Positions 1-6,838 of a DNA stretch of 55,377 nt are shown piece by piece. This stretch comes from Synergistaceae bacterium (GTDB lineage: Bacteria > Synergistota > Synergistia > Synergistales > Aminobacteriaceae), in contig JAFSJJ010000033.1 in NCBI GenBank assembly GCA_017439345.1, forward strand, positions 1 through 55,377. Direction: 5' to 3'. The position numbers and the translations under genes are program-made. How positions within the stretch are numbered: position 1 is the stretch's first letter; each line of letters starts with the position of its first letter. Under the pieces are notes generated by a model. The model had not been told where the DNA came from and did no database searches. It was given only the letters and a program-made list of their open reading frames with translations.

Positions 1-25
1 AGCCACGAGCCACGAGCCACGAGCC
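1..25 (-). repeat. Heptamer tandem repeat (GGCTCGT)n, edge-truncated
   Basis: On the minus strand the 7-base unit GGCTCGT is repeated about 3.6 times and runs off the window edge. The first unit starts at the base right after a TATAAT -10 element, so transcription should start inside the repeat. The same layout with a different heptamer is seen at 945-1026. Confidence 0.85.
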
Positions 26-55
26 ATTATACTGATTTGCGCGCAATTTTGTCAA
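26..55 (-). promoter_or_regulatory. Sigma70 promoter abutting heptamer repeat
   Basis: On the minus strand TTGACA (50-55) and TATAAT (26-31) are perfect consensus hexamers with an 18-bp spacer. It reads leftward, towards a gene outside the window. The flanking bases (GGTTGACA, then AATTGC, then GTATAAT) match the promoter at 1027-1056. Confidence 0.85.
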
Positions 56-98
56 CCCTTTCATTAATAAATAATGCAAGCTAATTATATAATAAATT

Positions 99-120
99 CC
101 CCGGATAAAGCTCATCCGGG
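99..120 (-). terminator. Rho-independent terminator of the methyltransferase gene
   Basis: An inverted repeat, CCCGGAT (114-120 on the minus strand) pairing with ATCCGGG, lies just after the stop codon of the methyltransferase and is followed on the minus strand by a T-rich stretch. Confidence 0.7.
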
Positions 121-132
121 AGAAAATTTTAA

Positions 133-882
133 TTAAATCTTTGCTGCCTTCTCTGCCAGGACATGATAGCCGAAGCATAACAATTCACCGGAGCTGTTAT
201 CGTTCTTGTCCATCAAGTATAACTTTCTCAGCATAATTTCTTTCGCAAGCCGTCCTGTAATTCCCAAGTTAAGACCTGAATATTTTTTACCTACACCATC
301 AAGCCTGCGGAGTTCTTGAGCAATATAACTGAAATAATTTCCGTTTCTTGTTATCGATACAGGAATCAAATTATTTTCTTTCAAGACCCTTTCATACCAG
401 TAAGAATTAAACCCGGTCGCAAAATGATACGGTGCAAAGTGAGTCAAGCTGCAGAAAGGAGCAGTAATTATAAGTCGGCCTCCAGTCTTCAAGAGCCTTG
501 CAAATTCCCTTACAGCATCAGCGGGATTAAATAAATGTTCGAATACTTCAGTGCATAAAATTACATCGAACGAAGCATCAGGTTCAGGAATATTAACTAT
601 ATCGCTTACAATATCAATTCTGCTGGTGTCCCATTTACCTGTTTGAAGACCTTTGCCGTCTCCTGTGCCTGTGTATTGATTAAAGTCCTGACTCACATAA
701 ACAAGATGGCTGCAGTATTCTTTGTATTTGCACTCTCCTGCGCCTGCATCGAGAAGCCTTTTACCTGAGGGAATTGCCTGAAGCTGAGATTTTACCCATT
801 CATCACGATTTGAGGGATTATCTTGGCCTATATTGCCGGTTGCACCGATAAGAAACTTTACTAGAGAAGCTGCAATATTCAT
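133..882 (-). CDS. Class I SAM-dependent methyltransferase
   Basis: A 249-residue soluble protein. The SAM-binding motif I is LLDAGAGE (about residues 43-50). Further on, the stretch around residues 100-118 (SFDVILCTEVFEHL) matches the Methyltransf_11 fold that binds SAM and ends beta strand 4. The substrate cannot be told; relatives act on quinones, sugars or lipids. An AGAGAGG Shine-Dalgarno site about 8 bases before the ATG at 882 supports the start. The gene is transcribed alone, between the recA terminator and its own terminator, from a strong promoter at 1027-1056. Its leader would be about 135 nt, more than half of it heptamer repeat, which is unusual. Confidence 0.8.
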   Translation of the reverse strand: MNIAASLVKFLIGATGNIGQDNPSNRDEWVKSQLQAIPSGKRLLDAGAGECKYKEYCSHLVYVSQDFNQYTGTGDGKGLQTGKWDTSRIDIVSDIVNIPEPDASFDVILCTEVFEHLFNPADAVREFARLLKTGGRLIITAPFCSLTHFAPYHFATGFNSYWYERVLKENNLIPVSITRNGNYFSYIAQELRRLDGVGKKYSGLNLGITGRLAKEIMLRKLYLMDKNDNSSGELLCFGYHVLAEKAAKI

Positions 883-944
883 TATATTGACCTCTCTACT
901 TGCTCAAACGTTGAAACTATATTAGATTTAGAGACAAGAATTAC

Positions 945-1026
945 GCGAACTGCGAACTGCGAACTGCGAACTGCGAACTGCGAACTGCGAACTGCGAACT
1001 GCGAACTGCGAACTGCGAACTGCGAA
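945..1026 (-). repeat. Heptamer tandem repeat (TTCGCAG)n, about 11.7 copies
   Basis: On the minus strand the unit TTCGCAG is repeated perfectly over 82 bp. The first unit directly abuts the -10 hexamer at 1027-1032. The repeat would form the 5' end of the methyltransferase mRNA. Perfect copies suggest recent expansion by slippage, so copy number probably varies between strains. Confidence 0.95.
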
Positions 1027-1056
1027 ATTATACGCACATTTTTGCAATTCTGTCAA
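1027..1056 (-). promoter_or_regulatory. Consensus sigma70 promoter for the methyltransferase
   Basis: TTGACA (1051-1056) and TATAAT (1027-1032) on the minus strand with an 18-bp spacer. Transcription should start near 1020, inside the first heptamer. It shares spacing and flanks with the promoter at 26-55. Confidence 0.88.
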
Positions 1057-1090
1057 CCTCCTTTATACTTAAAAAAATAATTTCTAAAAA

Positions 1091-1130
1091 GTTTCCTCCA
1101 GCTGAATACACAAATTATACCAGCCAGAGG
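1091..1130 (-). terminator. Rho-independent terminator of recA
   Basis: On the minus strand CCTCTGGCTG pairs with CAGCTGGAGG (10 bp, two GU pairs) around an AT-rich loop, and AAACTTTTT follows. It lies directly after the recA stop. Confidence 0.85.
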
Positions 1131-5368: not shown

Positions 5369-6760
5369 TTACTGCCTCTCGTACTCGCTGAAGCTCTCCG
5401 TGTCGATTGATTTGATCTCGAAAACTTTTTCAATGCTTACACAGAAATTATTCGTTATCATCAAGTTAGCAAGCCTTGAGCCGTCTATCAGCATAATTTT
5501 TTCTGCCCTAGCATAATTCACAGCCTGAGCCGAGAAACTTGCCGTAGTAGCAAAGAGTCCCTTGCCTCCCTTGTCTGCCAATGCCCTGACGAAAGTTTGA
5601 ATGTCGCCCTTGCCTACTTTCTTGGACGGAGATAACTTGCGCGCCTGAATGTAGATAGGACTCAAACCGGGCTCATTCTCGAGTATTACACCGTGAATGC
5701 AGTCATCGCCCGAGACTTCAGTTGTATATCTTGCGTTCTGGAATGCCCGATAACCCATCTTGGAGAGCAGATCTATCACCAGCATTTCGAATCTGTCTGA
5801 AGGTATAGCCGCAGTCTTTCGCAGGACTTCATTAGCAAGTTCTTCGTTGAATTTCTCTAAGACGCTCTCAAGTGAATTTACGGACGAGTTTGCAATATTA
5901 TTTTCTGGTTCGTGTTGAGCAGCTGAAGGAGTTATCACGAAATTTGACTCTGACTCTGATTCTGAATCTGAATCTGAGTCTGATTCTTGTTCTGGTTCTG
6001 ACTCTGACTCTGACTCTGAGTCTGACTCAAGTTCTGACTCTGAGTCTTCAGGGTCTGCGTAAAATTCTGAAGCGTCATCATCGCCGAAATCTTCAAGAGC
6101 GTTGTTATCATTATCTTCTGTTTCGATTACCTGATTATCTTCCGGAGTATCTATTATCATGTTATTATCTTCTTCGCCTCCTGTTAAGTCTAAGTCCCCT
6201 TCGGTGTCTTCAAGTAATTCTGATTCTGATTCTGAGTCTGCTTCTGATTCAATTACTGACTCTGACTCTGACTCTGAGTCTGACTCTTCGTAAGTATCTT
6301 GCGCTTCTGGTTCTGACTCAGACTCAGACTCAGACTCTGACTCAAGTTCTGCTTCAGTCCCTGATTCTGACTCTGAGTCTGCTTCTGCTTCAGGTTCGGG
6401 CGGCAATTCGAATTCAGACTCTGCCAGAGCTTCTGACGTTCCCCGAGTCCTGAGTCTTGCTAAATAGTCATCGTCAATGCTTACAGGGTCATCATCAAGG
6501 ACATCGAGTCCCAAGTTAGTAATCATGTAAGTATTCTTAGAAGGACTTGAAATTAAACCGTGCTGTTTCAAATCGCTTCGAGCCTTCTTAATATGTTCGC
6601 GCAGAATATTTTTATCACCTGAAGACATCTCATTTGGGTCTTCGCCTATATATCTGGTTATTATGCTGAACAATTCCCCTATAACGTAGCTGTGAGGCAT
6701 CTCATCTCTGAAAGCCTCGAGAAGGGGCTTGCGTATTTCCTGAGTGATGGGAACAGGCAT
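5369..6760 (-). CDS. Mrr-like protein with long Ser/Glu/Asp linker, probably not a nuclease
   Basis: 463 residues from the ATG at 6760, chosen because GAGGTG lies 8 bases upstream; a longer reading would start at 6796 without a site. Residues 1-90 look like the Mrr N-terminal winged helix (DEMPHSYVIGELFSIITRY, ending in a helix that reads ITNLGLDVLDDDP). Residues 115-285 are a highly acidic tract of SE, SD and ES dipeptides. Residues 305-450 resemble the Mrr catalytic fold (FEMLVIDLLSKMGYRAFQNA, then SPIYIQARKLSP). In active Mrr domains the motifs read IDG and QAK; here they read IHG and QAR, so two catalytic positions appear lost. It heads the rimO-pgpA-cinA-recA operon. Confidence 0.75.
   Translation of the reverse strand: MPVPITQEIRKPLLEAFRDEMPHSYVIGELFSIITRYIGEDPNEMSSGDKNILREHIKKARSDLKQHGLISSPSKNTYMITNLGLDVLDDDPVSIDDDYLARLRTRGTSEALAESEFELPPEPEAEADSESESGTEAELESESESESESEPEAQDTYEESDSESESESVIESEADSESESELLEDTEGDLDLTGGEEDNNMIIDTPEDNQVIETEDNDNNALEDFGDDDASEFYADPEDSESELESDSESESESEPEQESDSDSDSESESESNFVITPSAAQHEPENNIANSSVNSLESVLEKFNEELANEVLRKTAAIPSDRFEMLVIDLLSKMGYRAFQNARYTTEVSGDDCIHGVILENEPGLSPIYIQARKLSPSKKVGKGDIQTFVRALADKGGKGLFATTASFSAQAVNYARAEKIMLIDGSRLANLMITNNFCVSIEKVFEIKSIDTESFSEYERQ
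5940..6400 (-). repeat. Low-complexity hexamer-like DNA encoding the Ser/Glu/Asp linker
   Basis: Two blocks (about 5945-6055 and 6215-6390) consist of imperfect repeats of TCTGAC, TCTGAG and TCTGAT. They encode alternating serine and acidic residues in one frame. Six-base units keep the frame when they expand or contract. The opposite strand reads as a leucine/threonine-rich open frame, which is a shadow. Confidence 0.85.
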
Positions 6761-6807
6761 AAAATTTTCACCTCGTAAATATGAATGAATAATCATGACT
6801 GCGAAAA

Positions 6808-6838
6808 ATTATACTTCAAATTACGAATTTATTATAAT
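6808..6838. promoter_or_regulatory. Divergent -10 elements between Mrr-like gene and deacetylase
   Basis: TATAAT on the minus strand (6808-6813) faces the Mrr-like operon and TATAAT on the plus strand (6833-6838) faces the deacetylase, 19 bp apart. No good -35 is visible for either. After the minus -10 comes a single TTCGCAG, the same heptamer that is amplified at 945-1026. Confidence 0.5.

What the first reader, a model, noticed from the sequence alone, without database searches (positions are those of the whole stretch)
1..1056. Two near-identical sigma70 promoters that each run straight into a heptamer tandem repeat
Seen directly: minus-strand promoters at 26-55 and 1027-1056 both have perfect TTGACA and TATAAT, an 18-bp spacer, and shared flanks (GGTTGACA, AATTGC, GTATAAT). 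In each, a 7-bp tandem repeat starts at the very next base after the -10 (GGCTCGT in one, TTCGCAG x about 11.7 in the other). The two heptamers differ in sequence but not in length or position. Transcription must start inside the repeat, so copy-number slippage would change the length of the 5' leader in 7-nt steps without touching the promoter. A single TTCGCAG also follows the minus-strand TATAAT at 6808-6813. Inference: a promoter class in which the initially transcribed heptamer is amplified, perhaps for phase-variable expression or by a transcription-linked mechanism.
Basis: partly seen in the sequence, partly recalled or inferred. Interest (0 to 1): 0.78.

Follow-up and report, generated by a model that had tools for sequence, protein, structure and literature searches.

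The report
Repeat-switched surface genes in rumen bacteria
Bacteria of one gut-dwelling Synergistaceae genus carry dozens of surface-sugar genes whose start is interrupted by a 5- or 7-letter DNA stutter, so each gene is probably switched on or off by gaining or losing a copy, and every such stutter sits right behind a near-perfect promoter-like sequence whose purpose is not known.

Summary
Both perfect TTGACA-N18-TATAAT sites run into heptamer arrays. In about 1.5 Mb of this genome, 15 of 17 heptamer arrays of at least 3 copies, and 4 of 5 pentamer arrays with visible flanks, lie directly behind TTGACA-N16-18-TAnAnT. The arrangement is spread across the genus and near absent outside it.

The interpretation needs changing. 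A ribosome-binding site lies just before TTGACA, and a start codon lies inside the 'promoter spacer'. The array is therefore in coding sequence. Of 88 sites with enough flank, one of three copy-number phases gives a fused long ORF (40) or a leader ORF ending at the next gene's start codon (41). None of 50 distinct units contains a sense-strand stop. A separate extended -10 promoter lies about 32 nt upstream. The genes are mostly surface-glycan enzymes. These look like translational on/off contingency loci, not variable-length 5' leaders.

What stays unexplained is why a near-consensus promoter-like element, with its predicted start inside the array, is invariant there. In the held papers the closest precedents are H. 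influenzae hmw1A and S. gallolyticus pil1. No RNA or switching data were available.

The parts
1..26 (-). heptamer array GGCTCGT x3.7, cut by the contig end; continues in contig C2 (same unit)
26..55 (-). internal promoter-like element P2: TTGACA-N18-TATAAT; TTG start codon at about 46-44
56..62 (-). SD-like GAAAGGG before the -35
   Evidence: sequence; consensus
84..89 (-). candidate upstream promoter P1, -10 TATAAT, 34 nt before TTGACA
133..882 (-). SAM-dependent methyltransferase gene, controlled by the 945-1026 array; its ATG (882-880) overlaps the stop of the leader ORF in one phase (TAATG)
945..1026 (-). heptamer array TTCGCAG x11.7, perfect, stop-free in all frames
1027..1056 (-). internal promoter-like element P2: TTGACA-N18-TATAAT
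1045..1047 (-). leader start codon TTG, 9 nt after AAGGAGG; the ON phase would need +2 (or -1) units
1057..1063 (-). Shine-Dalgarno-like AAGGAGG
   Evidence: consensus
1114..1119 (-). candidate P1, extended -10 TGGTATAAT

Best explanation
Each site is a simple-sequence-repeat contingency locus with a shared 5' design: P1 (extended -10, TGnTATAAT), about 20 nt, SD, TTGACA, start codon (ATG/GTG/TTG), TAnAnT, a perfect 5- or 7-bp array, then coding sequence. Slipped-strand mispairing changes copy number by one unit. Because 5 and 7 are not multiples of 3, each change shifts the reading frame. In one of three phases translation from the start codon runs through the array into the enzyme (fused type), or into a leader peptide that ends on the start codon of the enzyme and promotes its translation (coupled type, as for the methyltransferase in the window). 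In the other two phases translation stops soon after the array. Most genes served are surface-glycan enzymes, so the population would be a mosaic of surface types. Shown by sequence: the layout, stop-free units, open phases, stop-start overlaps, restriction to the genus, gene functions. Inferred: slippage rate, P1 transcription, ON/OFF protein switching, coupling. Unknown: the role of TTGACA-N16-18-TAnAnT, which may be a real second promoter starting inside the array.
For: One of three phases opens: 40 fused and 41 coupled of 88 sites with enough flank. Stop-start overlap of exactly -1/-4/+2 nt in 27 of 48 non-fused sites (counted) against 15% in ordinary genes. 0 of 50 distinct units carry a sense stop, 18 carry an antisense stop. 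Only 5- and 7-bp units: 0 of 58 hexamer arrays lie at such sites. SD purines and start codons at nearly all sites. P1: perfect TGnTATAAT in 50 of 100 sites against 0.55 in shuffles, clustered at -30 to -35. GT2, GT4, GT8, sugar transferase, MBOAT, LicD and acyltransferase families. A duplicated GT2 gene in contig C36 has 7.6 and 5.6 copies in otherwise nearly identical flanks. The orthologous methyltransferase in G018 lacks the cassette.
Against: No reads, strain pairs, RNA or protein data. In coupled types the downstream gene often has its own SD, so OFF might be leaky. Start codon to SD distance is long (about 15 nt) in a subclass. P1 is clear in about 80% of sites only. Of 30 single-ATG fused loci, only 4 assemblies are in the open phase (p=0.07 against equal thirds). 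7 of 88 sites open in no phase.
Confidence: 0.85

Rival explanations
1. One reading: the only promoter is TTGACA-N18-TATAAT, RNA starts inside the array, and copy number tunes the 5' leader length, as in hmw1A where expression falls with repeat number.
For: Near-invariant -35/-10 with 16-18 bp spacing. Weak Y/R preference at +5/+6 after the -10. hmw1A precedent, where the heptamer overlaps the -10 of P2 (PMC8262952).
Against: Fused-type genes have no start codon after the array, so such RNA could not be translated. Units exclude 6-mers and sense stops. A second promoter and an SD lie upstream.
Confidence: 0.06
2. Both: frame-based switching by P1 mRNA, plus a genuine P2 promoter firing into the array whose job is to raise repeat instability (transcription-coupled mutator).
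For: TTGACA before the start codon in 3 of 740 ordinary genes but at nearly all arrays. Not needed for coding. -10 and array always abut.
Against: Copy number does not differ between TATAAT and weaker -10 sites (p=0.9). One intact array has TTGCAA instead (L387). No instability data.
Confidence: 0.2
3. Mobile or gene-converted 5' cassette: the conserved parts are simply shared ancestry, copied in front of different genes.
For: Subfamilies share spacer and unit (TTCGCAG, CGCACAT, CGGTTAT) across loci and species. The G018 orthologue lacks the cassette.
Against: Spacers diverge widely while -35 and -10 stay; no transposase or terminal repeats seen.
Confidence: 0.15
4. Ribosome-guided transcription attenuation by the leader peptide, as in S. 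gallolyticus pil1.
For: Coupled-type layout resembles it (PMC3894217).
Against: No excess structure after the array: mean z -0.03 over 90 sites.
Confidence: 0.05

Closest known systems
Haemophilus influenzae hmw1A/hmw2A promoter heptamer (ATCTTTC)n
   Same: 7-bp array abutting or overlapping a -10 box; two promoters; phase-variable surface trait (PMC8262952)
   Different: there the array is in the 5' UTR and tunes expression gradually; here it is in coding sequence with an SD and start codon upstream, with many different units and dozens of loci
Streptococcus gallolyticus pil1/pil3 GCAGA leader peptide
   Same: pentamer array in a short leader ORF upstream of a surface gene; phase decides leader length (PMC3894217)
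   Different: there it acts on a stem-loop terminator; here no such structure, and the leader stops on the next start codon
Coding-region SSR contingency loci (e.g. H. influenzae and Neisseria LPS genes)
   Same: non-triplet repeats near the start of surface-glycan genes, ON in one of three frames (PMC2651432)
   Different: 5/7-bp units of about 50 kinds with an invariant promoter-like element between SD and array
Marine Beggiatoaceae TAACTGA heptamer repeats
   Same: many 7-bp repeats next to start codons across a genome (PMC4679880)
   Different: one fixed unit, upstream of the start codon, contains stops, no gene bias, no TTGACA

Membership tests
SSR contingency locus (translational phase variation) | perfect tandem repeat of non-multiple-of-3 unit inside the 5' end of an ORF | tested here: met
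SSR contingency locus (translational phase variation) | one of three copy-number phases opens the gene | tested here: met
   81 of 88 sites
SSR contingency locus (translational phase variation) | copy number varies between cells of one strain | not testable with these tools
   only a paralogue pair differs, 7.6 vs 5.6 copies
SSR contingency locus (translational phase variation) | bias to surface-structure genes | tested here: met
   Pfam counts, (no genome-wide background computed)
hmw1A-type promoter/5'UTR repeat | repeat adjoins a -10 box | tested here: met
hmw1A-type promoter/5'UTR repeat | repeat lies in untranslated leader | tested here: not met
   SD and start codon upstream; fused ORFs
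pil1-type leader-peptide attenuator | repeat-bearing leader ORF before the gene | tested here: met
   41 coupled sites
pil1-type leader-peptide attenuator | terminator hairpin between repeat and gene | tested here: not met
sigma70 promoter (P2) | -35/-10 consensus with 16-18 bp spacing | tested here: met
sigma70 promoter (P2) | RNA 5' ends at the predicted start | not testable with these tools
   no RNA data

The most novel reading that the evidence does not exclude
A consensus promoter is kept at every phase-variable start in this genus in order to open the repeat DNA and drive its slippage: a built-in, transcription-coupled mutator element dedicated to contingency loci.
Probability: 0.18. 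Interest if true: 0.88.

Novelty: new variant of a known kind. Interest (0 to 1): 0.66.

Why it matters
It reveals a large set of phase-variable surface-glycan genes in uncultured ruminant-gut Synergistaceae, for which three targeted searches of the held open-access papers found no earlier report. It gives a sequence signature by which all of them can be listed. It also makes a general question testable: whether transcription starting inside a repeat controls how fast a contingency locus switches.

Tried and rejected
Single TTCGCAG at 6799-6805: chance. Post-array motif (roughly YATTNTGYCCTT) as RNA structure or as partner of the SD: no excess folding, and own pairs bind no better than permuted pairs. 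Post-array motif as a fixed protein motif: the reading frame differs between loci. Link between -10 strength and copy number: none. Sites outside the genus: chance level without 5/7-mer arrays; one Clostridia contig has a tetramer array in a similar place. Relatives' sites were found by TTGACA patterns, so the invariance of TTGACA rests on the unbiased array scans only.

Full report
OBSERVATION. The two minus-strand TTGACA-N18-TATAAT sites are exact, and three such sites in the window compare with 0.10 expected. Heptamer arrays follow at once: TTCGCAG x11.7 at 945-1026 and GGCTCGT x3.7 at 1-26. The window is the start of contig C29 of a 2.54 Mb, 46-contig genome, so the second array is truncated. 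Contig C2 ends in the same unit. Several other contigs also begin or end in such arrays, as short-read assemblies do at long repeats. The neighbours are recA, cinA, pgpA, rimO and rny (names from the translations, by recognition).

MORE THAN TWO CASES. A pattern search of the genome gave 26 TTGACA-N15-20-TATAAT sites, and 9 of them run into a heptamer array of about 2 or more copies. An array scan of 1.52 Mb found 27 exact heptamer arrays, of which 17 abut a promoter-like element, and pentamer arrays in the same position. None of 58 hexamer arrays does. Counting only arrays of 3 or more copies and asking simply for TTGACA upstream, 15 of 17 heptamer arrays have it, at 26-30 nt (one of the 15, L089, is a marginal low-copy case). 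The two exceptions are a contig end and an AT-rich repeat. For pentamers it is 4 of 5 with visible flanks. In 400 kb of a relative read without selection, 2 of 4 heptamer arrays have exact TTGACA; of the other two, one has TTGCAA in the same layout and one is a different kind of site. In ordinary genes with an SD, TTGACA before the ATG occurs in 3 of 740.

GENUS-WIDE. AAGGAN{1,4}TTGACAN{16,18}TANANT matches in 34 of 43 genomes of the genus, with almost no matches of the reversed control. In other genera of the order it is at chance level. In the family search, 40 genomes outside the genus give matches in one, without arrays. Named relatives are mostly ruminant-gut Synergistaceae and Fretibacterium assemblies; 27 of 31 such sites carry arrays. 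A curated set of 100 sites has 79 heptamer and 21 pentamer arrays, with 50 distinct units, median about 5 copies, up to 14.7.

THE ARRAY IS CODING. Purines like AAGGAG precede TTGACA, and a start codon lies 0-15 nt after it at nearly every site, usually 0-3 or 8 nt after it. Translating from it with 0, 1 or 2 extra units, one phase opens a long ORF in 40 sites and a leader ORF that ends at the start codon of a downstream gene in 41; 7 show neither and 12 were too short. Exact -1/-4/+2 overlaps occur in 27 of the 48 non-fused sites against 15% for ordinary genes treated alike. No unit contains a stop on the sense strand, whereas 18 of 50 do on the other strand; shuffled units average 6. In the window the leader from TTG (1047-1045) ends in TAATG on the methyltransferase start; as assembled it is two units (or minus one) from that phase. 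A duplicated GT2 gene has 7.6 and 5.6 units with otherwise nearly identical flanks. The G018 methyltransferase orthologue lacks the cassette.

TWO PROMOTER-LIKE ELEMENTS. Half of the 100 sites have a perfect TGnTATAAT upstream, against 0.55 in shuffles, mostly 30-35 nt before TTGACA. RNA from this P1 would carry the SD and start codon. The TTGACA/TAnAnT element (P2) would start RNA inside the array. Position +5/+6 after the -10 shows a weak pyrimidine/purine preference, consistent with but not proof of initiation. -10 quality does not track copy number. One natural site has TTGCAA yet keeps its array. P2 is therefore real as a sequence element and unexplained as a function.

GENES. Pfam hits are GT2, GT1/4, GT8, bacterial sugar transferase, MBOAT, LicD, acyltransferase 3 and methyltransferases.

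KNOWN RELATIVES. hmw1A heptamers adjoin a -10 but lie in the 5' UTR (PMC8262952). pil1 uses a pentamer leader peptide with an attenuator (PMC3894217); no such structure is found here. Beggiatoaceae TAACTGA repeats have one unit upstream of start codons (PMC4679880). Three searches aimed at this group found no report; the library holds open-access papers only.

LIMITS. Everything is sequence evidence. Copy-number switching, P1 and P2 activity, coupling and protein expression are inferred.

Noticed in passing
G000 C41:131584-131614 (L049:11584-11614): Promoter with a 15-G run inside its -35/-10 spacer (TTGACA-G15-CATG-TATAAT) upstream of a 1057-aa secreted protein with a C-terminal hydrophobic anchor: looks like a separate, spacer-length type of phase-variable promoter.
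   Followed up: partly
window 5945-6387: Hexamer-based Ser/Glu/Asp repeats inside a 475-aa ORF (5369-6796, minus); in-frame repeats, unlike the 5/7-mers.
   Followed up: no
G000 contig ends C29:1, C2 end, C41:1, C25:1, C1:1, C4:1, C23:1, C26: Contigs break inside 5/7-bp arrays; matching units suggest joins such as C29-C2 and C25-C1.
   Followed up: partly
L345 (uncultured Clostridia contig): SD-TTGACA-ATG-TATAAT followed by a GACA tetramer array of about 19 copies, outside the genus.
   Followed up: no
after arrays in many loci, e.g. L052:1858, L273: A loosely conserved post-array motif (about YATTNTGYCCTTTT, G-poor) of unknown role.
   Followed up: partly
L182, L198, L108:2030-2062, L239: Sites with SD, TTGACA and -10 but a lost or eroded array, i.e. 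apparently dead contingency loci.
   Followed up: partly
L124 (G018): Orthologous methyltransferase after recA lacks the cassette and its ORF appears frameshifted.
   Followed up: partly
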